NCBI GenBank assembly: GCA_015654675.1
Contig: JAATGM010000023.1
Coordinates: 16,387 to 80,386, forward strand
Origin: Planctomycetota bacterium
GTDB lineage: Bacteria; Planctomycetota; Phycisphaerae; UBA1845; UTPLA1
DNA length: 64,000 nucleotides
Direction of reading: 5' to 3'
Below, in pieces: positions 22,060-31,842 of this stretch (positions within the stretch are counted from its first letter, which is position 1; the number at the start of each line of letters is the position of its first letter). Below the pieces are notes generated by a model that did no database searches, was not told the DNA's origin, and was given only the letters and a program-made list of their open reading frames with translations. The position numbers were made by a program, and so were the translations under genes.

Positions 22060-23031
22060 CTACTTGCGGACTTGCATGACGAGGATGCCGGTTTGGCCGA
22101 TATCTTCGCCCGTCGGGGCGACACCGACTGCGGTGTAATTCCCTCGGCGGACGATTGTCGTCGTGGAGAGCGAGTAGCCGGCTCTGGTTTCGGTGCGTTC
22201 GGGCTGGTCTTTGGGGGTCGTGATGCGGCGGAGTAGGTCGACGTTGGCGTTCAGGCCGATGCGGTCGGAGCCGTCGGCGGAGGAGGATTCGAGCACGCCT
22301 TCGACGCGGGCGCGATAGTCGGAGGCAATTCCGCCTTCGATCTTGAACTTCTGGCCTTCGCTGACGGTGGTGGAGAAGCGGCCGAGGAGGCGAATGTTTC
22401 CGAATCGTTCGAGTTCCTTGGCGACGTCGGCCAGGTCGGCGGGAATCGGCGAATCCGACTTGGCCTTCTCGGCGCTGGTCAGGAAGAACGCAAAGTCGAC
22501 GATGGCGATGGGAGTGGGGGTATCGAGTTTGGAGACGAGAACCTGAACCTCTTTCACGAAGCTTCCGGGGCCGCGGACGATGATCACGTTTCGGTCGCGG
22601 TCGGCCGCGAAGCGCGAGCCGCGGCGGTCGAAGACCTGTACGAGCTCGCCGATCAGTTCATTTACCCGACGATTAAGCACCGGGATCATGTAGGTTTCGG
22701 ACGGATCGCCCGTGGCGTTGTCGTCGGCGATATCGAGTTGGGCGATGAGCTGTTTTGCGCGCTCGTAAGACTCGTCGGAACCCTGAAAAATGAGTCCATT
22801 TGGGCGCTCGATCGCGCGGAGGCCGACGCCCTCGAACAGTCCACTCACCGCCGCAGCTACGTATTGGCTGTCCGCGTATTTGAGCGCGATGATGCGCGGC
22901 GGGTATTGAATCCAGTTCTTTCGCGGTGCATCGACCGGATTGGACTGCGGCTTCGGGTCCGCCGCGCCGGCGGCGTGCGCGAGCATTAGCAGGTTCGTGA
23001 GGGCGACAATGAAACAGATTCGAACTTTCAT
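22060..23031 (-). CDS. Exported protein with secretin-type N domains
   Basis: The 323-residue product has a clear signal peptide (1-23, ending AHAAGAA). A module like the short N domains of type II/III secretins (GspD/NolW) follows: IIALKYADSQYVAAAVSGLF and later YMIPVLNRRVNELIGELVQVFDRRGSRFAADRDRNVIIVRG. The C-terminal third is beta-rich but too short to make a full secretin barrel. It may be a periplasmic pilotin-like or N-ring-like component. It is encoded 12 bp after the anti-sigma gene, so it is likely a product of the sigma-factor operon. Confidence 0.7.
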   Translation of the reverse strand: MKVRICFIVALTNLLMLAHAAGAADPKPQSNPVDAPRKNWIQYPPRIIALKYADSQYVAAAVSGLFEGVGLRAIERPNGLIFQGSDESYERAKQLIAQLDIADDNATGDPSETYMIPVLNRRVNELIGELVQVFDRRGSRFAADRDRNVIIVRGPGSFVKEVQVLVSKLDTPTPIAIVDFAFFLTSAEKAKSDSPIPADLADVAKELERFGNIRLLGRFSTTVSEGQKFKIEGGIASDYRARVEGVLESSSADGSDRIGLNANVDLLRRITTPKDQPERTETRAGYSLSTTTIVRRGNYTAVGVAPTGEDIGQTGILVMQVRK

Positions 23032-23043
23032 GACGGGTCCTTT

Positions 23044-23541
23044 CTAAAGACTGGGCTTGGATTCGGCCGGCGAGGCGCTGGGCAGCCGCACGGGTTCATA
23101 AAGCATGACGATCGAGATGTGGGGATTCCGAGTGGGAAGACTGACAGCCAATGTTGGCGTTGAGGCGACGATCGTTGGAGCTGCACTGTTTTCGGCAACG
23201 ACGACCGGGGGCGGAACGATTTGGGACGGCGAGTCGGGCCGATGCAGCGCGCTTCGTACCCCGAGCCCGGCGGTGGCGAGCAGCGCGATGGCGGCGGCGA
23301 TTCGGAGCGGAGTTGCAAACGGGCGAATGATGCGGGGCGGTCGCGGGGCGGTAGCGATTCGGTCGGCGGCGGAGGAAAGGCCGACTAGATTGCGATTGAG
23401 CAGATCAAATGAGGTGAACACGTCGCGGCATTCCGCGCACTCTGTCAGGTGAGTGGTGACCTCGGCGCGGCTGACTGGATTCAGCTCATTGTCGAGCCAC
23501 TCGTCGAGGCGCGATTGAATTTCTTCGCAGCGGGGGTTCAT
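23044..23541 (-). CDS. Zinc-finger anti-sigma factor, membrane-anchored
   Basis: The 165-residue protein starts with an anti-sigma zinc-binding domain: RLDEWLDNELNPVSRAEVTTHLTECAECRDVF, written here in two overlapping parts, contains the HxxxCxxC signature. One transmembrane helix follows (about residues 77-95, ..LRIAAAIALLATAGLG), then a Pro/Ser-rich extracytoplasmic tail. It should sequester the sigma factor encoded just upstream until an envelope signal releases it. Its ATG overlaps the sigma stop codon (ATGA, 23538-23541), which shows translational coupling and fixes the start; the longer open frame upstream is antisense-like Arg/Pro sequence. Confidence 0.88.
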   Translation of the reverse strand: MNPRCEEIQSRLDEWLDNELNPVSRAEVTTHLTECAECRDVFTSFDLLNRNLVGLSSAADRIATAPRPPRIIRPFATPLRIAAAIALLATAGLGVRSALHRPDSPSQIVPPPVVVAENSAAPTIVASTPTLAVSLPTRNPHISIVMLYEPVRLPSASPAESKPSL

Positions 23542-24068
23542 TGTGATCCTCCGAGCTTGTTTGCGAGGGCGCGGCGGGCGAGGTGGACGTGGGTGCGGAC
23601 GGCGGCGACTGAGAGCTGCATGACCTGGGCGATTTCGTTGTAGTCCATCTGCTGCATGTTGCGGAGGATCAGCGCGATGCGCTGTTGATCGGGGAGATTT
23701 CCGATTGCGGCACGCAGCGACTCGATTGACTCGGCACGTTCGACGGCGTCGCTGGGGGACGTGGCATCCTGCGGGTCGAGCCAGTCGGCGAGTGGTTGCG
23801 GGGGGCGGCGGCGACGCTGGTTGAGGCAGAGGTTGGTCACGGTTCGATACAGCCACGGGGCGAGGGCCGGATCGGTTACGGCCGGGCCTTTGGTCAGCGA
23901 AAGTTGGAAGGCGTCCTGCACGATTTCCTCGGCGTCGTCGCGGTTCCAGACCAGCTTGATGGCAAATCCGAGCATGCGGCGACGGAGTTCGTCGAGCGAT
24001 GTCGGGGCGGCGGTCTGGTCTGCGGCTGCATTTGCGGCCGGGGGGCCTTCGAGCATGGTCTGGTCCAC
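23538..24068 (-). CDS. ECF-type RNA polymerase sigma factor
   Basis: This 176-residue alternative sigma factor has region 2 (LGFAIKLVWNRDDAEEIVQDAFQL, split around the DAEEIVQDAF core, with LAPWLYRTVTNLCLNQRRR after it). Region 4 is LPDQQRIALILRNMQQM followed by the helix-turn-helix DYNEIAQVMQLSVAAVRTHV. It directs core polymerase to stress or envelope promoters and is controlled by the zinc-finger anti-sigma factor that overlaps it. The operon also carries the secretin-N-domain gene. It starts 83 bp downstream of the ESCRT-like cluster on the same strand. Confidence 0.92.
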   Translation of the reverse strand: MDQTMLEGPPAANAAADQTAAPTSLDELRRRMLGFAIKLVWNRDDAEEIVQDAFQLSLTKGPAVTDPALAPWLYRTVTNLCLNQRRRRPPQPLADWLDPQDATSPSDAVERAESIESLRAAIGNLPDQQRIALILRNMQQMDYNEIAQVMQLSVAAVRTHVHLARRALANKLGGSQ

Positions 24069-24151: not shown

Positions 24152-25918
24152 TCAGGCGATGGTTGTTGAGGTTGCGGCGAGCACGGCGGCGTCCTGCAGG
24201 GTGTGGCCGGTGAGGCGACCCACGGGGAACGAGGCGGCGGGCTCGTCGGGGGCGGCGATTGGCCAGAGGAACAGGCGGTCGCGGCGCTCGTTGGCGGCGA
24301 CGATGACGTCCTCGGCGACCCAGGCCCAGCGGACGGCTTCGGGGGCGCGGAACTCTATACGGTGGGCATCGTCGATGACGACGAGATCGACCATCGGGCG
24401 GCCGTCGGCGATGAGGATGCGCGGCACACCGGAGGCGGCGAGGACGCCGAGAGAATGGACGGCGTCGCCGGTCGGCGGGCGGAGGGTGCGTGCTTCGCCG
24501 CGATCCGGGGCGATGCGCGACCAGTGCAGGACGCGGCCGTCGTCGAGGCCGGCGACGACGAAGGATTCGGTGAGGGTGAGGCATTCAACGGTGCCGGGGA
24601 GGCGGCGGCGGATCGGCGGAGATCCGTCCGTTGGATTCCACGCGAGGACTGAATCGGCTACGGCGAACCAGAGGCGGCCATCGGGATCGGCCTGGATATC
24701 GCGAATGGTGCGGGCGTTGGCGGTTTCGCCGGGCAGGGTGAATTCGAATTTGTCATCCGCGGCGAGCGACCAAGCGATTAGGCCGACTTCCGAGTGTGTG
24801 GCGAACAGGCGATCAGCGATGATCGTCGCAGCATTCACGCCGCCGCGCACGGGGCGCGGGGGATCGAATGTAAAGGTGCTTAAGACTTCGCCGGATGGAC
24901 TGACGCGATGGACACCTCGGGCTGCGCCGACCAGGAGTGTTTTGGCGCCATTCGTGCACGCCATGCGGACGGAACGGAGCGGGCCGGCCTCGGGTGGCAG
25001 TGCGACACGGCGGATGGGCTCGTTTGGTCGGTCGGGCGCGAACCAGAGCAGGTCCTGGCCGGCGACGGCGAGGATGGAGGCCGTGCGCGTCGCGGGTTGT
25101 GTGGCGAGCAGGCCGCGGTAGAGGTCGCCGCGCTGGTCGGCGTCGAACATTTTGACCAGATCGGGCATGGGCATGCCGGGGTTTTCGCGCGAAAGGGCGG
25201 CGAGGCGCTGCAGTAACTCTTCAACGCCGGCGATCTGCTTGCGGCGGACGGCGGTGAGGGATTCGCGAATCTGGGCATCGGTTTCGGCGTGGCGCTTGAG
25301 CTGAGTATCGCGCTGGCGATCGCGCTGGTCGGCCTGAAAAGCGGGTGAGCGGAACTCGATGCGAGCAACGCGGATGAGCGAGATGCCGATGGCGAAGAGC
25401 TCGGGCTGGAGGACGCTGAGGACGGTTTCGGCGGCGGCGCTTCCGGCGTCGGCGCGGACGAGGTCGGCGGCGGCGGATTTTCTGGCGAAGTTGCCGACCG
25501 CGGAGAGCAGCAGTTGCCGGACGCAGGTGACGATCTGGTCGGAGGTGAGGTAGCCGGGGGCGGAGAAGGCGGCGCGGCGGAGGGCGAGCAGCTCGGGCTT
25601 CTCGGCGATGATGGCGGCTTCCAATTCGATGTCGGCCTGGCATTCCCAGCCGTCGCTCGCGGCGAGCGATTCGATGCGGGCCGTGAGTCGCATGGGGCCG
25701 GTGGCGAAGAGCAGCAGTTCGCGGACGCCCTCGCGCGGGATTTCCTCGCCGGCGCGGATGAGCCGGGCGGCGGAGTCGCCGGTGACGAGGGCGGCGCAGT
25801 GGATCGGGACGGTAATGCGTTTGCGCGCGAAGGCCTGCTCGGCGGGGATGAGGGCGGCGACGCGGTTGGCGGTTCCGATGAGACTGGGGTCGAGCGGCGG
25901 ATTGGTGGTCGGGTTCAT
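24152..25918 (-). CDS. SPFH/band-7-like protein fused to a beta-propeller
   Basis: Residues about 25-235 have the pattern of an SPFH (stomatin/prohibitin/flotillin) domain. It ends in LQPELFAIGISLIRVARIEF then a charged helix (AFQADQRDRQRDTQLKRH), which is how SPFH domains pass into their coiled coil. Residues about 240-275 are a short helical linker. Residues 285-588 contain repeated four-stranded blade-like units (RTIRDIQADPDGRLWFAVADS, ESFVVAGLDDGRVLHWS) resembling WD40/PQQ-type propellers. No transmembrane helix is evident, so membrane binding would need partners or lipidation. It is last in the ESCRT-like cluster, 9 bp after the AAA ATPase gene. SPFH is a family-pattern call and moderately sure; the propeller call is weaker. 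Confidence 0.62.
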   Translation of the reverse strand: MNPTTNPPLDPSLIGTANRVAALIPAEQAFARKRITVPIHCAALVTGDSAARLIRAGEEIPREGVRELLLFATGPMRLTARIESLAASDGWECQADIELEAAIIAEKPELLALRRAAFSAPGYLTSDQIVTCVRQLLLSAVGNFARKSAAADLVRADAGSAAAETVLSVLQPELFAIGISLIRVARIEFRSPAFQADQRDRQRDTQLKRHAETDAQIRESLTAVRRKQIAGVEELLQRLAALSRENPGMPMPDLVKMFDADQRGDLYRGLLATQPATRTASILAVAGQDLLWFAPDRPNEPIRRVALPPEAGPLRSVRMACTNGAKTLLVGAARGVHRVSPSGEVLSTFTFDPPRPVRGGVNAATIIADRLFATHSEVGLIAWSLAADDKFEFTLPGETANARTIRDIQADPDGRLWFAVADSVLAWNPTDGSPPIRRRLPGTVECLTLTESFVVAGLDDGRVLHWSRIAPDRGEARTLRPPTGDAVHSLGVLAASGVPRILIADGRPMVDLVVIDDAHRIEFRAPEAVRWAWVAEDVIVAANERRDRLFLWPIAAPDEPAASFPVGRLTGHTLQDAAVLAATSTTIA

Positions 25919-25927
25919 CGGCTGATT

Positions 25928-27034
25928 CTAGTTCGCGGTGGCAAAGGCGTCGTACTTCGCGAGGTCGGCTTTCTGGACGCTGCGGCCGACCTGCTCGATG
26001 GCGGCGTTTACGTCGGACAGGGTAATGGCGCGTTGCTCGCCGCCGCCGACGGCGGAGAGGAATGGGATGGTGGCGGCGCGCTCGGCGACGGCCTTGATGT
26101 CGGCGCCGCTGAAGCCGTCGAGCAAGGCGACGAGGGCCGCGAGATTTACTTCGTCGGCCAGTGGGCGCTTGGCGAGGTAGATTTCGAGCAGGCGATAGCG
26201 GGCGGGCTCGTCGGGCAGGGGGACGTGAATCTTGGCGTCAAAGCGGCCGGGACGCATGACGGCGGGGTCGAGGGCCCAGGGTTCGTTGGTCGCGCCCATG
26301 AAGAGGAGCGAGCGCTGGGCTTTGCGGTCGAAGCCCTCCAGCTCCTGGAGAATCTGGGGGACGACGCGGGTCATGACGGTGCTGTGCGAGTCGCGGCGGC
26401 GGGGGACGAGGGCTTCGATTTCGTCGATGAAGATGATGGCGCGGGGCTCGGCCTTGGCGGCGTCAAATAGCTTTTTGATGTTTTGCTCGGCTTCGCCCAC
26501 CCACTTGCTGAGAATCTGCGCGGGGGAGACGACGAACATGGTGGCTTCGATTTCGCCGGCGACCGCGCGGGCGATCATGGTCTTGCCGGTGCCGGGCGGG
26601 CCGTAGAGCAGGACGCCGCCGCCGACGTTGACGCCGTAGTGGGTGGCAAGGTCCGGGTGCGAGAAGGGGTAGATCATCTTTAGGCGGATTTCCTGCTTCA
26701 CGTCGTCGAGGCCGGCGATGTCGTTGAAGGTGATTCCCGGTTTCTCGCGGATGACCCAGTCGTTGGCGTCAGACGAGCGATCGTCGTCTTCCTTGGCGCG
26801 GGCGGGGCGGGCAGCGGATTTGCGCTGATCGCACGACTTCGCCATTTCGAGCAGCTCGCGGGCGAGGGATTCGTGTTGCTTGCGGAGTTTTTCAGTCGGA
26901 GCCGATTCGGCCAACTCGATCATGGCTTCGGCGGCCTGAGCGAGATAGCTCTTTGCGGCGGCGTAGTCGCCGGTCTTGTAGGCGGCGACGCCCTTGTCCT
27001 TGAGGCGCTCGAATGTGGAGAAGCTGACGGGCAT
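25928..27034 (-). CDS. Vps4-type AAA ATPase with N-terminal MIT-like domain
   Basis: Residues 1-70 predict three helices with the MIT pattern (LKDKGVAAYKTGDYAAAKSY, then ESLARELLEMAKSCDQRK), as in Vps4 where MIT binds ESCRT-III tails. After a charged linker, one AAA module follows: Walker A GPPGTGKT (145-152), pore loop 1 KWVGEAE (177-183), Walker B IIFIDE (200-205), sensor 1 GATNEPW (247-253) and arginine fingers in RPGRFD (261-266). The KWVG pore loop and GATN.PW are typical of the Vps4/katanin/spastin group. In eukaryotes and archaea Vps4 disassembles ESCRT-III filaments. Its gene follows three ESCRT-III-like genes, and I infer the same role here. A generic FtsH/Cdc48-like AAA with a TPR-like N-domain is the alternative. 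Confidence 0.85.
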   Translation of the reverse strand: MPVSFSTFERLKDKGVAAYKTGDYAAAKSYLAQAAEAMIELAESAPTEKLRKQHESLARELLEMAKSCDQRKSAARPARAKEDDDRSSDANDWVIREKPGITFNDIAGLDDVKQEIRLKMIYPFSHPDLATHYGVNVGGGVLLYGPPGTGKTMIARAVAGEIEATMFVVSPAQILSKWVGEAEQNIKKLFDAAKAEPRAIIFIDEIEALVPRRRDSHSTVMTRVVPQILQELEGFDRKAQRSLLFMGATNEPWALDPAVMRPGRFDAKIHVPLPDEPARYRLLEIYLAKRPLADEVNLAALVALLDGFSGADIKAVAERAATIPFLSAVGGGEQRAITLSDVNAAIEQVGRSVQKADLAKYDAFATAN

Positions 27035-27052
27035 GCTGGGCTTCCGCGGTGG

Positions 27053-27661
27053 TTACTTCGACTCTTTCTGCACGGAGCCCTTGAGGGCGTCCAGTTCGGC
27101 GCGGAGGCCTTCGAGCTTTTCGACTTCGCGGGCGTGCTCGGCTTCGCCTTCGGCGTCGATCATGGCGTCGATTTCCTGGTCGCTGATGGCTTCGGGGGCG
27201 GAGGTGGCTGAGTCGCCGCTGGCCATTTGCTCGACGCTGTCGAGGAATAGCGACATGCGCTCTTCCATGGTCTGGCTCTGCAGCAGGGCGCGTTCCCAGT
27301 CAAGTTGGGTCTTGTTCAGATCGGTTTCGCCGAACATGCGACCGATTTCGGTGGCCATGGTTCCCATGGCAGTGGCGAAATCGGTAGAGGCCTCGGCCTG
27401 GCGCTTGATGATGAGGGCGTTTTTCACGGCGAGGAGCTGGCGCTCCAACATTTTCTTGATGGCGGCGGTCTTCTTGAGGGTGTTGCGTATGAAGGTGTAT
27501 TGATTGTTGTCGCCGATCTGCCGGGCGCGGCGGGCGTTGCGGATGAACTCCTCGGTGAACTTGTTCTGCTCGACGATGGCCTTCTCAATTCGGCGGATGC
27601 CCTGGCGGACGCGGATTTCGCGTTCGATGCGGCGTTCTTCGGATGACTTGAACAGCGACAT
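27053..27661 (-). CDS. ESCRT-III (Snf7/Vps2-like) filament protein with MIM1-like tail
   Basis: The 202-residue, almost wholly helical protein begins MSLFKSSEERR, like the membrane-inserting N-termini of ESCRT-III proteins. A basic helix 1, a GDNNQ turn (50-54) and a long helix 2 (YTFIRNTLKKTAAIKKMLER) follow. The segment STDFATAMGTMATEIGRM (92-109) and the following LLQSQTMEERMSLFLDSVEQM match the corresponding part of Vps2/CHMP2. After a short linker the acidic C-terminus ends in LEGLRAELDALK (183-194), close to the MIM1 motif that recruits the MIT domain of Vps4. It is encoded immediately upstream of the MIT-AAA gene. PspA/Vipp1, the known bacterial ESCRT-III relatives, look different at both ends. 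Confidence 0.78.
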   Translation of the reverse strand: MSLFKSSEERRIEREIRVRQGIRRIEKAIVEQNKFTEEFIRNARRARQIGDNNQYTFIRNTLKKTAAIKKMLERQLLAVKNALIIKRQAEASTDFATAMGTMATEIGRMFGETDLNKTQLDWERALLQSQTMEERMSLFLDSVEQMASGDSATSAPEAISDQEIDAMIDAEGEAEHAREVEKLEGLRAELDALKGSVQKESK

Positions 27662-27676
27662 AGCGGACTCCCCGAA

Positions 27677-28285
27677 TCAGACGCCTTCGGCGGCGGCTTT
27701 GTGGTGTTCGCGGACGCGGCGGTCGGCTTCGTCGAAGCCCTCGGTCTGGTCCTTGATCATGCCGGTGTCGATCTTGTCCCAGATGTCGAGGACGGCCTGG
27801 CCGGCGGTTGAGACTTCGGCGGTGGCCGGCTCGCCGGCGATCTTGAGCATTTCGTCGAGGCGGGACTGATACATTTCGCCGGTGACGGCGTCGTTTTCGA
27901 TGAGTTTTTCGAGAGCGATCAGATCTTTCTCGCCGACGAGGCCGAGCTTGCTTCCGGTGGCTTTCGCACGTTCGGCGCTTTCCTTAAGCATGCGGAGGCG
28001 GCTGACCGTTAGGGCTTCCTTGCTGCGGATGTTGAGCTGGCGCGAGAGCATTAGCTGCTCGGTCGTGTGAAGCTCGAACTGGCCGGCGAGGGCGCGGCGC
28101 ATTTCAGGGGACTTTTCTTTCGAGCCGCGATCGAAGATGTCCTGCTTTTTCTTGGCGAGGTCGCCGACGCGGTTCATGAGGCGGTCGCGCTCCTTTTCAA
28201 GGAGCAACTCCTGACGGCGGAGTTCGCTGCGCGTCATTTGCGAGAGCGGCTTTTCCTTGCTGGTGAGCCAGTCGAAGAGTCCCAT
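27677..28285 (-). CDS. ESCRT-III-like coiled-coil protein (second paralogue)
   Basis: This 202-residue protein begins MGLFDWLTSK, an amphipathic start much like that of the upstream paralogue (MSAFDWVRSLF). It has a long basic helical hairpin (LLLEKERDRLMNRVGDLAKK, then DIFDRGSKEKSPEMRRALAG, then QLMLSRQLNIRSKEALTVSR) and an acidic C-terminal region with two further helices (about 118-150 and 163-200). The helix lengths, the Gly at the hairpin turn and the acidic tail fit the ESCRT-III/PspA fold, though similarity is weaker than for the 27053-27661 product. Its ATG lies 2 bp after the upstream stop, with GGAG in between-overlap, so translation is coupled. A generic coiled-coil scaffold is the alternative. 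Confidence 0.62.
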   Translation of the reverse strand: MGLFDWLTSKEKPLSQMTRSELRRQELLLEKERDRLMNRVGDLAKKKQDIFDRGSKEKSPEMRRALAGQFELHTTEQLMLSRQLNIRSKEALTVSRLRMLKESAERAKATGSKLGLVGEKDLIALEKLIENDAVTGEMYQSRLDEMLKIAGEPATAEVSTAGQAVLDIWDKIDTGMIKDQTEGFDEADRRVREHHKAAAEGV

Positions 28286-28287
28286 GG

Positions 28288-29724
28288 TTACTCCGCCTGC
28301 GGCTTTTCTGGCTTGGCGACGCGCGGGTTGGTCAGCGGCGGCTCGGACTTGCGTGCGGCGCCGGGCGATTCGGCCGAGGAGGCCACGCGTTCATCGTCGC
28401 CCTGGAGCTCCTTCAGGATGGCGGCTTCGTCGTCGCTCATGGCCTGTTCGGCGATACCGGCTTCGAGGCCTTCGACCATGCGGGCATCGGCGCCGAGGGT
28501 TTCGAGCATTTCTTCGGCGGCGACAGCGTGTTCGGTGAGCTCCTCTGAGGTCGGGAGCTTGGCCATCTGGCCTTGCTGGAGAAGCGTGAGATTGTGGATG
28601 TCAGTGCTCAGCACATTGATCTGCTGATTGAGCATCGAGGCCGTGGTGTTCCAGCGGGCGATCTCCTTGCGGAGTTGAGCGACCTGTGAGGCGACACGGC
28701 GCTTGACGACGATTGACGTGCTTTGCTTGCCTTCGTCGAGCACCGACTGTTCGCGTTTTTCGAGGCGGGCGATGTCTTCGTAGAGGCGCTCGCGACGGGC
28801 GGCGAGTTTGTTGCGATTCTCGATCAGGTGATTGATCTTGCCGGCTTCGTCGCCCTTGGACGAGAAGAGCGAACGAACCCAATCGAACGCGCTCATCGAC
28901 GATTCCTCCCGGCTGCTTTCACCCGGCAGCCCACGATATAAGACGACATCGCCATCGGCGTGCGAAACCTTCAATTCTTCGTCGAACTGGGACATGGATT
29001 CGAGCACGCTTTCGACGAGGCGCGGCCGGACGTTTAGCTTTTGCGAGATCCTGCGTGCGGAGATTCCGCCCAGCAGCAAGTCGGCGCGGGCGGCATCGAT
29101 CTCCTGGCGGACACGGAGGCGCTTTTCGTTTTCGCTCTCGGGGTCGAAGGAGCGGACGAACTGGATGTCCAGCTCGCCGGCGAGCGGCATGGTTTTCCAT
29201 CCGCCACCGGGCAGCGGCTCGCTGAGGATGACATTCAATCCGGGCCAGTCGCGGCCGGCGGTCCATACTTCCGGCGCGAAGCCGGTGGGGCTGCAGACGA
29301 TGATCAGCTTACTGACGCCGCGGACCTGGCCGCTGATGAGGTTGCGAATGTGGGACGAGAGCTCGGAGAGCGTGACGGGGCGCGGGTCGTTGTCGAGCAG
29401 AGGGCCGGGCGGGGCGAGGACTGTTGCGACGGTGACAGACTTCAGGCGACGGCCGAAGAGGAAGCGGCGGGCCCAACCGGTGCGGACGACGGTTGCGCCC
29501 TGGGGGAGGCCTTTGCGGCGCTCAGTGCCGAAGAGGCGTCGGTCGACCATGGCTTTGTGGACGTCTTCGGCGGAGTCGCGGCGGGCGGTTTCGAACCACT
29601 GGCCGGGGATGACTTTCACGGGCGCGGAGGACATGGCGGCCTCGGCGGCGGCGATGAAGTCCTGCTCGGCCTGTTGGGCGCGGCGGCCGGAATCGGACAT
29701 GGATGCTTTAGAGTCGGTTGTCAT
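28288..29724 (-). CDS. Winged-helix protein fused to an ESCRT-III-like coiled-coil domain
   Basis: The 478-residue protein has two parts. Residues 35-200 form an alpha/beta domain I do not recognise (core VSKLIIVCSPTGFAPEVW and LNVILSEPLPGGGW). Residues about 204-265 look like a winged helix (ISARRISQKLNV, RPRLVESVLESMSQ, then the wing LKVSHADGDVVLYRG). From Met277 on, MSAFDWVRSLFSSK opens an ESCRT-III-like helical domain with the same hairpin pattern as the next gene (QSVLDEGKQSTSIVVKRRVA, LRKEIARWNTTASMLNQQIN). It ends in a Pro/Ala-rich tail. ATG 29724 is supported by a 4-bp overlap with the upstream stop. The layout recalls eukaryotic CHMP7 (ESCRT-II-like winged helices plus ESCRT-III), which may be analogy only. 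Confidence 0.65.
   Translation of the reverse strand: MTTDSKASMSDSGRRAQQAEQDFIAAAEAAMSSAPVKVIPGQWFETARRDSAEDVHKAMVDRRLFGTERRKGLPQGATVVRTGWARRFLFGRRLKSVTVATVLAPPGPLLDNDPRPVTLSELSSHIRNLISGQVRGVSKLIIVCSPTGFAPEVWTAGRDWPGLNVILSEPLPGGGWKTMPLAGELDIQFVRSFDPESENEKRLRVRQEIDAARADLLLGGISARRISQKLNVRPRLVESVLESMSQFDEELKVSHADGDVVLYRGLPGESSREESSMSAFDWVRSLFSSKGDEAGKINHLIENRNKLAARRERLYEDIARLEKREQSVLDEGKQSTSIVVKRRVASQVAQLRKEIARWNTTASMLNQQINVLSTDIHNLTLLQQGQMAKLPTSEELTEHAVAAEEMLETLGADARMVEGLEAGIAEQAMSDDEAAILKELQGDDERVASSAESPGAARKSEPPLTNPRVAKPEKPQAE
28894..28910 (-). promoter_or_regulatory. Internal ribosome-binding site and in-frame ATG
   Basis: Inside the 478-residue gene, a strong Shine-Dalgarno GGGAGGA (forward 28904-28910) stands 7 nt before an in-frame ATG (28896-28894). 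Initiation here would give a free 202-residue ESCRT-III-like protein starting MSAFDWVRSLF. The local sequence looks like a former intergenic spacer, so it suggests an in-frame gene fusion that kept the downstream start. Confidence 0.6.
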
Positions 29725-29984
29725 GCGGCGAAGAGTCTCCGGCCGCAGCGCGAGCAGAAGCGGGCGTTTGGACGGTTGCGATAACCGCATTGTGGATTTG
29801 CGCAGTTTAGCTGCTGTGCGCCGGCTGCGCCGCGCAGGCGCGGGCCGAAGTCATCGGTGTCACAGCTGGTCCAGCGGCGGGATGAGCGCACGAACGCGCG
29901 GAACATCATGGCGGGGACGACGAGGAACATCGCCACGACGATGATGTCAAAGAGGACTGCGCCGCCAGAGGAGAAAATGAACAT
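29721..29984 (-). CDS. Single-TM zinc-ribbon protein
   Basis: The 87-residue protein has one N-terminal hydrophobic helix (about 8-30, AVLFDIIVVAMFLVVPAMMF) followed by a basic RSSRRW stretch. A C-terminal treble-clef-like zinc ribbon follows (CANPQCGYRNRPNARFCSRC, residues 61-80, then GRRL). The ribbon resembles those on the kinase encoded just upstream. It starts within the kinase stop codon (TGATG, 1-bp overlap at 29984) and overlaps the following gene by 4 bp, so all three are coupled. It could tether cluster components to the membrane; that is inference. Confidence 0.75.
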   Translation of the reverse strand: MFIFSSGGAVLFDIIVVAMFLVVPAMMFRAFVRSSRRWTSCDTDDFGPRLRGAAGAQQLNCANPQCGYRNRPNARFCSRCGRRLFAA

Positions 29985-31024
29985 CAGGTAACCGCCGCCT
30001 TCGCGAGCGTTCCGCAGAAGATGCAGTATTGGTCATCGTTTTCGAGCCATGCATCGCACTGGCCGCAGCGGCGCGGCTGGGCGGCGAGCTGGCGGCCGCA
30101 GTGCATGCAGAAGTTGTCATCGTCTTCGATCGGGGCTTTGCACGCGGGGCAGGCGGCGGTGCTGGCGCGACGATTCGGCATGTGACCCGCAACCGGCGGT
30201 GTCGCGGCCTTTTCGATGGCGTCGAGCACCTCGCGCGCGGCGGTGAAACGGCGGTCGCGGCGGGCGTAAAGCCGGGTGAAGACTTCGTCGATCCAGGCGG
30301 GAAGATCGTTGCGGATCATGCCGGGAGTTTCGGTTCCGCTGGGGCGCTCGCCGGTGGTGATCTCGAAGAGGACGACGCCGGCCGAGAAGAGGTCGGAACG
30401 CGGGTCGTCTTCGTTGCCATCGCGCTGCTCGGGCGACATGTAGGCGAGGGTGCCACTGATGCTCTTGCCGGGTTCGGCGAGAATCGAGCCGGATTGCATG
30501 ATGCTGTGGGTGGTGACTTGCAGGGCGCGGCCGAGGCCGAAGTCGCTGATTTTGACATCGCGCGGCTCGATGGTGTCGACGGAGGCGTCCTGGCCGCCGG
30601 CGATGAGGATGTTTTCCGGTTTGATGTCGCGATGGATCATGCCGCAGTTGTGGGCGTGCTCCAGTCCGGTGAGGAGGCCGACCATGACGCCGCGGATGGC
30701 CGCGATCGGGAGGCCGGTGGGGTGGCGCTTGACGACTTCGCGGAGCGAGCAGCCGTCCACGTACTCCATGATGAGGTAGGGCGGATCGGCGAAGGGATCG
30801 AGGCCGAGGGCGCGGACGATGTTGGCGTGTTCGAGGCCGTGGACTGCGACGCCCTCGTGGCGGAGGTTGGCAACGTATTGGGGGTTCGTCGGAATTTTGA
30901 CGGCGACGGCGCGGTCTTTCCAAATGTGATGGACGGCCTTGAAGACCTGTCCGAAGCTGCCGGCGCCGAGCGGCGCAACCAGCACGTATTCGCTGACTCG
31001 GTCGCCAATCTTTGGACCGGTCAT
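29984..31024 (-). CDS. Hanks-type Ser/Thr protein kinase with paired C-terminal zinc ribbons
   Basis: Residues 1-275 are a complete eukaryotic-like kinase: glycine loop LGAGSFGQVFKA (19-30), catalytic lysine K43 (AVAVKIP), HRDIKPEN (131-138), DFG (161-163), and GTLAYMSPEQRDG (191-203). The tail (about 292-338) has two zinc-ribbon units, CPACKAP..FCMHCG and CGQCDAW..YCIFCG. No transmembrane helix is present, so the kinase is cytoplasmic. ATG 31024 is chosen because GGGAGGA lies 7 nt upstream. It is the second gene of the ESCRT-like cluster and may phosphorylate its ESCRT-III or AAA products; this is inferred from operon position only. Confidence 0.92.
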   Translation of the reverse strand: MTGPKIGDRVSEYVLVAPLGAGSFGQVFKAVHHIWKDRAVAVKIPTNPQYVANLRHEGVAVHGLEHANIVRALGLDPFADPPYLIMEYVDGCSLREVVKRHPTGLPIAAIRGVMVGLLTGLEHAHNCGMIHRDIKPENILIAGGQDASVDTIEPRDVKISDFGLGRALQVTTHSIMQSGSILAEPGKSISGTLAYMSPEQRDGNEDDPRSDLFSAGVVLFEITTGERPSGTETPGMIRNDLPAWIDEVFTRLYARRDRRFTAAREVLDAIEKAATPPVAGHMPNRRASTAACPACKAPIEDDDNFCMHCGRQLAAQPRRCGQCDAWLENDDQYCIFCGTLAKAAVT

Positions 31025-31046
31025 GGACAATCCTCCCGCGCGGCGT

Positions 31047-31445
31047 CTATCGGTCGACGTGTCGCGCCAGCGACTCGCAGATGACGTAATTATAAGCCCC
31101 TGCGGCAAGCCAACCAACCAGGACGACGGTCCATGTTAGCGCACCATTGATGTGCCAGCCGGCGAGCCACATGGCCATGAGCATGTCGAGGCCGCACAGG
31201 GCGGCAATGAGGGCCAGGCCGGCGGAGTTTGATTCGAACTTGAGAATGCGCGGAATGAGCGGGTAGGTGACCCACGGCAGCGCGATGGCGAAGGCAATCC
31301 ACGCGAAGGAAAGGCGGATGGTGGTCCAGAGAGAGCGGAGGTCTTCGGGGTGCCGCCAGAACCAAATTCCGGCGAGACCGGCGCCGAGGACGCACAGGAT
31401 GGTGACGACCTTTCCGCCGACGTATTTTCCGATGGCGCTGATCAT
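31047..31445 (-). CDS. Small polytopic membrane protein
   Basis: The 132-residue protein has about four hydrophobic helices (near 12-28, 44-64, 75-95 and 100-120), short loops and no recognised family. Its stop lies 22 bp before the kinase ATG, and it is the first gene of the minus-strand ESCRT-like cluster. It may be the membrane platform of the system, but no sequence motif shows this. Confidence 0.7.
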   Translation of the reverse strand: MISAIGKYVGGKVVTILCVLGAGLAGIWFWRHPEDLRSLWTTIRLSFAWIAFAIALPWVTYPLIPRILKFESNSAGLALIAALCGLDMLMAMWLAGWHINGALTWTVVLVGWLAAGAYNYVICESLARHVDR

Positions 31446-31644: not shown

Positions 31645-31702
31645 GCTGGGTTCCCGGTTGGGACGGTTCAGGGTGATTCCTGAGCCGGTCCTGAATCGAA
31701 CC

Positions 31703-31776
<74 letters not shown>

Positions 31777-31842
31777 TTTTTCATGATCGCCTCGGATGCG
31801 GCCTTCGGGTCGTGTTGGGGCGATTTTCATTTTCCGGGGGCG

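What the first reader, a model, noticed from the sequence alone, without database searches (positions are those of the whole stretch)
24152..31445. A bacterial ESCRT-III/Vps4-like membrane-remodelling gene cluster
Eight same-strand genes, most overlapping or within 20 bp of each other, combine an MIT-domain Vps4-type AAA ATPase, three ESCRT-III-like helical proteins, an SPFH-propeller protein, a zinc-ribbon kinase and two small membrane proteins. Known bacterial ESCRT-III relatives (PspA, Vipp1) are usually found without a dedicated Vps4/MIT partner. This set looks closer to the eukaryotic/Asgard module and may remodel the invaginated membranes of planctomycetes. Whether exactly this cluster has been described I cannot check.
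Basis: partly seen in the sequence, partly recalled or inferred. Interest (0 to 1): 0.95.

Follow-up and report, generated by a model that had tools for sequence, protein, structure and literature searches.

The report
A bacterial ESCRT gene cluster
A planctomycete bacterium and many of its relatives carry a gene cluster whose core proteins match those of an archaeal ESCRT cluster, including a true ESCRT-III relative beside a Vps4-like ATPase; reviews say bacteria lack such a pair, and here it would likely bend and cut the cell's membranes.

Summary
In detail: eight minus-strand genes (24152-31445), overlapping or 2-22 bp apart. The 27053-27661 product is an ESCRT-III relative: an archaeal ESCRT-III profile run on 4,355 ORFs hit the family's 41 members and nothing else (best 1.9e-24; window 7.7e-10), and the family profile finds only CHMP3, CHMP2A and Snf7 in the PDB. 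Five profiles from the cluster match, specifically, five proteins of a Thermococcus ESCRT cluster, among them ESCRT-III and Vps4; the SPFH-propeller matches none. The ATPase has an MIT-like three-helix N-domain (TPR not excluded) but in the tree lies between Vps4 and Cdc48/FtsH, so it is Vps4-like, not shown to be Vps4; other planctomycetes carry a second ATPase that does group with archaeal Vps4. ESCRT-III and the window's ATPase type co-occur (76 both, 9 single, 213 neither, of 298 class genomes). The nearest module tested is euryarchaeal; an Asgard one was not available. Reviews say bacteria lack a clear Vps4; my searches found no paper on this cluster. Membrane bending and scission are inferred. 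A division role is open but not general: FtsZ passes its cut-off in 0 of 298 genomes, the ESCRT-III gene is in 82.

The parts
31047..31445 (-). Small membrane protein (132 aa), first gene of the cluster
   Evidence: ORF; hydrophobic segments around 2-30 and 77-95; family in 53 of 56 named loci with enough flank
29984..31024 (-). Ser/Thr protein kinase with C-terminal double zinc ribbon (346 aa)
   Evidence: Pfam Pkinase 1.2e-38, DZR 7.2e-8; HRDIKPEN and DFG motifs; 58 of 60 loci
29721..29984 (-). One-TM protein with a zinc ribbon (87 aa); shares 1 base with the kinase gene and overlaps the next by 4
   Evidence: Reading frame, hydrophobic segment 10-28; 45 of 62 loci
28897..29724 (-). N-terminal half of the 478-aa fusion A: globular part plus a winged-helix-like region
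   Evidence: Profile A7 matches the 607-aa protein of the Thermococcus cluster, 96.6%, E 4.9e-10, 225 columns; the winged-helix-like region alone (A8) does not match that protein (0.2%) and its best PDB hits are FeoC-type winged helices, E 0.003; a separate gene in other lineages
28288..28896 (-). C-terminal half of the fusion A: coiled-coil part, paralogue of 27677-28285
   Evidence: hhalign to the B family 95.9%, E 6e-9; to Thermococcus hyp201 82.4%
27677..28285 (-). Coiled-coil protein B (202 aa), possible second ESCRT-III-type subunit
   Evidence: hhalign to Thermococcus hyp198 97.7% and hyp201 92.1%; not significantly related to protein C (0.5%)
27053..27661 (-). ESCRT-III protein C (202 aa)
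   Evidence: Archaeal ESCRT-III HMM 7.7e-10 for the window protein; 41 of 41 hits are this family; PDB profile search returns only ESCRT-III; Pfam Snf7 in 17 of 36 members, not in the window's own; AlphaFold2 helices 7-49, 52-112, 115-147, 161-200
25928..27034 (-). Vps4-like AAA ATPase, type PL1 (368 aa)
   Evidence: NCBIfam best hit CdvC 235.6 bits, below its cut-off of 650; hhalign to Thermococcus Vps4 100%, E 2.6e-48; tree
26819..27034 (-). MIT-like N-terminal three-helix domain of the ATPase
24152..25918 (-). SPFH (band 7) domain followed by a WD40-type beta-propeller (588 aa)
   Evidence: Band_7 in 4 of 13 family members, best 5.5e-5, not in the window protein itself; propellers in PDB profile search, best a designed one 1.2e-17, natural WD40 1.3e-5

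Best explanation
This is an ESCRT gene cluster in a planctomycete bacterium: its 27053-27661 product is an ESCRT-III homologue encoded beside a Vps4-like AAA ATPase, and together they are predicted to build and take apart filaments that bend and cut the cytoplasmic membrane. Shown: five profiles from the cluster match five proteins of a Thermococcus ESCRT cluster, and ESCRT-III and the ATPase go together across genomes. [quoted passage not shown] the winged-helix half of A would nucleate or anchor the polymer, as winged-helix proteins are thought to do in other ESCRT systems; the SPFH-propeller and the small membrane proteins would mark the membrane patch; the kinase would control assembly; the ATPase would grip the acidic C-terminal tail of C through its MIT-like domain and thread subunits through its pore. 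The cell process served (vesicle or invagination budding, repair, or division) is open; membrane remodelling or repair at SPFH-marked patches is my first choice.
For: Archaeal ESCRT-III HMM against 4,355 ORFs: 41 hits at E<=10, all 41 the C family; 0 in the reversed set, 0 of 820 shuffles. C profile against PDB: all 8 hits at E<=10 are CHMP3, CHMP2A or Snf7, best 2.6e-4. Foldseek ranks 1-9 are ESCRT-III, ranks 10-11 Vipp1. Specificity matrix of 6 profiles against 28 archaeal proteins. MIT-like N-domain. Co-occurrence of C and PL1: 76 both, 6 C only, 3 PL1 only, 213 neither of 298, Fisher p 1.6e-59; 26 of the 27 genomes with a PL1 match of 300 bits or more in the phylum sample also have C. Conserved neighbourhood. 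Present in single-contig genomes (G200, G228, G236, G410, G479; CP030884.1 and CP070718.1), so not a misbinned archaeal contig.
Against: No biochemistry. Foldseek E-values are weak (best 6.1e-3) and long helices match unrelated proteins at similar Z. The window protein C alone hits no Pfam family. The ATPase lies outside the Vps4 clade; its Vps4_C signal is just below and its MIT signal far below the Pfam cut-offs, a whole-genome search with the MIT model did not pick it, and TPR structures tie with MIT. A and B are not shown to be ESCRT-III. The winged-helix-like region alone does not match the Thermococcus protein that the whole N-half matches. In 14 of 65 named loci no same-strand ATPase was found in the fetched stretch, and in 9 of 17 class genomes, a set chosen partly because linkage was missing, the ATPase lies on another contig or far away. 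The window protein's own tail has no MIM1-like motif by my pattern; 16 of 41 family members do. In a haloarchaeal locus only the ATPase matched.
Confidence: 0.8

Rival explanations
1. A Cdv-like cytokinesis machine: in these FtsZ-less bacteria the ESCRT polymer would constrict and cut the division neck.
For: FtsZ is over the family cut-off in 0 of 298 genomes of the class; Phycisphaerae divide by a binary-fission-like process without FtsZ and the main protein is unknown (PMC6952346, passages); archaeal Cdv uses ESCRT-III and Vps4 (PMC7615534, passages).
Against: C is in only 82 of the same 298 genomes, so most relatives without FtsZ divide without it. Pfam named no division gene among the cluster proteins scanned.
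Confidence: 0.2
2. A soluble AAA chaperone with coiled-coil and TPR-like partners, or a signalling complex, that never touches membrane.
For: The ATPase N-domain also resembles a TPR; kinase and propeller are common in signalling; coiled coils give weak matches to many things.
Against: C matches only ESCRT-III in the profile tests; SPFH and two membrane proteins sit in the same cluster; the core set matches an archaeal ESCRT cluster.
Confidence: 0.1
3. An ordinary PspA/Vipp1 stress system with an unrelated ATPase.
Against: No PspA_IM30 match in this genome or in 36 C members at E<=0.1; the PDB profile search returns no PspA; PspA occurs in 33 of 298 class genomes, 4 of the 82 with C and 29 of the 216 without.
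Confidence: 0.03
4. Archaeal contamination or a very recent transfer from archaea.
For: Close module-level match to Thermococcus.
Against: Found in 15 of 15 sampled genomes of the family (own included) and 44 of 50 others of the order, in single-contig chromosomes, and with an ATPase that forms its own clade.
Confidence: 0.02

Closest known systems
Euryarchaeal ESCRT cluster, as on the Thermococcus peptonophilus plasmid NZ_CP014751.1 ('Main' clade of Makarova et al. 2024; this clade assignment is my inference)
   Same: ESCRT-III, two coiled-coil proteins, a 607-aa protein matching the N-half of A, a Ser/Thr kinase and a Vps4 in one cluster
   Different: No PP2C among the cluster proteins scanned; an SPFH-propeller and small membrane proteins are added; the N-half is fused to a coiled-coil protein; the ATPase is a separate lineage
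Archaeal Cdv system (CdvA/CdvB/CdvC)
   Same: ESCRT-III plus MIT-AAA ATPase; CdvC is the best NCBIfam match of the ATPase
   Different: Accessory genes differ; ATPase outside the CdvC branch. I did not search for CdvA
Eukaryotic and Asgard ESCRT-III/Vps4
   Different: No ESCRT-I or ubiquitin domain named by Pfam among the cluster proteins scanned (genome not searched); two extra coiled-coil proteins of unshown fold
PspA/Vipp1 (bacterial ESCRT-III superfamily)
   Same: General helical hairpin fold
   Different: Not recognised by the PspA model; here an AAA ATPase and a winged-helix-like partner sit in the cluster
Bacterial Vps4-like and Snf7-like genes noted by Ravi et al. 2024 (PMC11237479, passages)
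   Same: Notes transfers of Vps4-like ATPases to bacteria, scattered bacterial Snf7 genes, and PspA or TM-bearing Snf7 homologues with an AAA+ ATPase in some longer bacterial operons; suggests ATP-dependent remodelling
   Different: Beside the transferred Vps4-like ATPase snf7 is displaced by a TPR/6TM gene; the AAA+ protein paired with PspA has two AAA domains; 'planctomycet' does not occur in the main text; no winged-helix, SPFH-propeller or kinase set is described in the passages I saw

Membership tests
ESCRT-III (Snf7 family), protein C | Sequence homology to ESCRT-III | tested here: met
   Archaeal ESCRT-III HMM 41 of 41 hits; hhalign 99.2%, E 2e-19; PDB profile hits only ESCRT-III; Snf7 in 17 of 36 members, best 2.7e-6
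ESCRT-III (Snf7 family), protein C | Core of long alpha1/alpha2-3 hairpin plus alpha4 and C-terminal helix | tested here: met
   Predicted only: AlphaFold2 model pLDDT 75, pTM 0.44; Foldseek ranks 1-9 ESCRT-III but no E below 0.001
ESCRT-III (Snf7 family), protein C | Basic core, acidic C-terminal tail | tested here: met
   Net +9 in first 130 residues, -12 in last 70
ESCRT-III (Snf7 family), protein C | MIT-interacting motif in the tail | tested here: inconclusive
   MIM1-like pattern (recalled) in 16 of 41 members, shuffled mean 1.9; strict form in 2 of 41; not in the window protein
ESCRT-III (Snf7 family), protein C | Membrane-bound filaments | not testable with these tools
   Needs biochemistry
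ESCRT-III, proteins A (C-half) and B | Sequence homology to ESCRT-III | tested here: inconclusive
   No significant match to C or to archaeal ESCRT-III or to PDB ESCRT-III; one weak Snf7 hit among 15 A-halves, none among 24 B
Vps4 ATPase (PL1, window) | Classical AAA module with pore loop | tested here: met
   AAA 8e-40; motifs
Vps4 ATPase (PL1, window) | N-terminal MIT domain | tested here: inconclusive
Vps4 ATPase (PL1, window) | Vps4_C oligomerisation domain | tested here: inconclusive
   19.5 bits, cut-off 21.3; 24 of 28 ATPases match at E<=0.05, the archaeal one included
Vps4 ATPase (PL1, window) | Falls in the Vps4 clade | tested here: inconclusive
   Own clade 100/99; best tree puts it on the Cdc48/FtsH side of the split from Vps4 (91/81); grouping with archaeal Vps4 + PL2 not rejected, p-AU 0.169
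Vps4 ATPase (PL2, other planctomycetes) | Falls in the Vps4 clade | tested here: met
   PL2 + archaeal Vps4 one side of a branch, 100/99
Archaeal ESCRT system ('Main' type) | ESCRT-III and Vps4-type ATPase in one locus | tested here: met
   with the ATPase caveat above
Archaeal ESCRT system ('Main' type) | Winged-helix protein (arCOG09748 type) | tested here: inconclusive
   N-half of A matches the 607-aa Thermococcus protein, 96.6%, but the winged-helix-like region alone does not, and the arCOG label of that protein is inferred from the paper's description
Archaeal ESCRT system ('Main' type) | arCOG08177 protein (Cas2-like + TBP) | not tested
   No reference sequence identified with certainty
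PspA/Vipp1 | Recognised by the PspA_IM30 model | tested here: not met
   0 matches in this genome; none among 36 C members at E<=0.1

The most novel reading that the evidence does not exclude
Planctomycetota own a complete, vertically kept ESCRT machine of archaeal type, with two kinds of MIT-AAA motor (a true Vps4 and a new sister lineage), which cuts membranes in FtsZ-less bacteria, and so breaks the rule that ESCRT with Vps4 is confined to archaea and eukaryotes.
Probability: 0.5. Interest if true: 0.97.

Novelty: new variant of a known kind. Interest (0 to 1): 0.88.

Why it matters
[quoted passage not shown] Here ESCRT-III, coiled-coil, winged-helix-like and Vps4-type genes sit together in many Planctomycetota, a phylum reported to lack FtsZ (PMC6952346, passages) and known for unusual internal membranes (general knowledge). 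That makes two open questions testable: how these bacteria shape and cut membranes, and how an archaeal-type ESCRT module came to be in bacteria (old transfer or older common origin).

Tried and rejected
One search used an out-of-frame translation of protein A (start 29723); its one hit was discarded and the part redone from 29724; the N-domain profile hits designed TPR repeats through a 24-residue helix-turn-helix repeated many times, and one nearly whole-domain hit, Chitin synthase 1 (2mpk; that this is an MIT domain is recalled), at 0.0012; not decisive, so a structure was predicted. PDB searches with B and A profiles gave mostly coiled coils (CdvB at E 0.68 and CHMP4b at 1.1 are not significant). 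Contamination was considered and rejected. PspA membership was tested and rejected. Division as the sole role was weighed and ranked below. No solved structure was found for the SPFH part (best 60 of 68 rows seen); Band_7 came from Pfam. In one search PL1 was joined by a long-branched Streptomyces row, which was left out of the tree; that tree's own warning is that the eukaryotic and crenarchaeal Vps4 branches are long and meet.

Rows dropped: A1 used 36 of 41 C proteins (four with mis-trimmed starts, one near-duplicate); A2 used 24 and A3 15 of 46 B/A hits; A4 used 15 of 39 ATPase hits; the archaeal ESCRT-III profile used 42 of the 120 listed proteins, after a length filter and thinning; the tree dropped one row and added five.

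Literature searches. None listed a paper whose title or abstract start concerns a planctomycete ESCRT-III/Vps4 cluster; bioRxiv and most subscription papers are not held, so a description elsewhere is possible.
Full report
What is there. The window carries eight consecutive minus-strand genes between 31445 and 24152: a small membrane protein, a Ser/Thr kinase with a double zinc ribbon, a one-TM zinc-ribbon protein, a fusion of a winged-helix-like part and a coiled-coil part (A), a coiled-coil protein (B), a 202-aa helical protein (C), an AAA ATPase (called PL1 here) and an SPFH + beta-propeller protein. Neighbours overlap by 1-4 bases or are 2-22 bases apart, so they most likely form one operon (inferred). 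The host is taken to be a planctomycete of the Phycisphaerae because its nearest named relatives are.

The cluster matches an archaeal ESCRT cluster part by part. A Thermococcus peptonophilus plasmid carries a kinase, a Vps4, a PP2C phosphatase, a Snf7-like gene and uncharacterised genes in a row (Snf7 E 4.2e-4, below its cut-off, Vps4_C 7.7e-9). Six planctomycete profiles were compared with 21 proteins of that locus and 7 of a haloarchaeal one. C matches the Snf7-like protein (98.1%); B matches two coiled-coil proteins (97.7% and 92.1%); the C-half of A matches one of these (82.4%) and the other weakly (47%); the N-half of A matches the C-terminal part of a 607-aa protein (96.6%, 225 columns); PL1 matches Vps4 (100%) and the haloarchaeal AAA (100%); SPFH-propeller matches nothing. 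The other pairs are under 5%, except PL1 with an ABC ATPase (79% over 31 columns, the P-loop). In the haloarchaeal locus only the AAA protein matched. The winged-helix-like region of A alone did not match the 607-aa protein (0.2%), so that this protein is the arCOG09748 winged-helix protein of Makarova et al. is inferred. They describe winged-helix proteins, kinases and, in one clade, SPFH proteins in archaeal ESCRT loci (PMC10936438, section 5).

Distribution. In the class sample C is in 82 of 298 genomes and PL1, at E<=1e-80, in 79 of 298: 76 both, 6 C only, 3 PL1 only, 213 neither. Counting the window's own genome, C is in 15 of 15 sampled genomes of its family and in 44 of 50 others of its order. 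In the phylum sample C is in 40 of 199; a PL1 match of 300 bits or more in 27 of 199, 26 of them with C; the other 14 C genomes include one family whose fetched loci carry PL2-type ATPases beside C. In one search each of 20 chosen C genomes had a PL1 gene; in 9 of the 17 from the class it is not linked to C. Around C in 80 named loci the neighbours recur on the same strand. PspA occurs in 33 of 298 class genomes: 4 of the 82 with C, 29 of the 216 without, and not in this genome, so in 78 of 82 C is the only ESCRT-III-superfamily protein detected by these two searches. Of the 80 named records one is labelled Alphaproteobacteria and one only 'bacterium'; I take the first label to be wrong (inference).

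How it likely works. C, with or without A and B, would polymerise on the cytoplasmic membrane through its basic core; the ATPase would bind the acidic tail and pull subunits out, as Vps4 does. An MIM1-like pattern (recalled) is in 16 of 41 tails (shuffled mean 1.9), not in the window's. The winged-helix half would nucleate, SPFH and the small membrane proteins would mark the site and the kinase would regulate. All of this is inference from homology. A division role is attractive because FtsZ is over its cut-off in 0 of 298 genomes of the class (13 of the 298 have a distant FtsZ-like protein, none of them with C) and the main protein of Phycisphaerae division is unknown (PMC6952346, passages), but 216 of the 298 lack C.

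Known or new. [quoted passage not shown] Ravi et al. note Vps4-like transfers to bacteria without snf7, scattered bacterial Snf7 genes, and PspA or TM-bearing Snf7 homologues with AAA+ ATPases in some bacterial operons (PMC11237479, passages), which is a partial precedent. I found no description of this cluster in the searches listed. It is a new variant of a known kind: an archaeal-type ESCRT system in bacteria, with an added SPFH-propeller and an ATPase of a separate lineage.

Noticed in passing
window 22060-24068, minus strand: Directly downstream lie an ECF-type sigma factor (23538-24068), a protein with a zf-HC2-like anti-sigma start in the ORF at 23044-23856, and a secretin-N-like protein (22060-23031); labels are by eye. 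The first and last were not found by phmmer in the 40 other loci, so they are probably not part of the cluster.
   Followed up: partly
window 31702-31777, plus strand: tRNA-Asp(GTC) just upstream of the cluster, on the opposite strand.
   Followed up: no
L050, L057, L063, L066, L087, L088: Other planctomycete lineages carry two different AAA ATPases near the ESCRT-III gene: PL1 and PL2, the latter grouping with archaeal Vps4.
   Followed up: partly
G384, G408, G430, G481, G302 and others: 13 of 298 genomes of the class have distant FtsZ-family proteins well below the ftsZ cut-off; none of these genomes has the ESCRT-III gene.
   Followed up: no
L096 (Halarchaeum plasmid pCBA1220-02): A haloarchaeal plasmid locus with kinase, PP2C and a Vps4-like AAA whose neighbours match none of the planctomycete profiles.
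   Followed up: partly
G000:C48:39119-39211 and G000:C18:55430-55570: Two other proteins of this genome give weak MIT-model matches (E 4e-4 and 1e-3, below cut-off).
   Followed up: no
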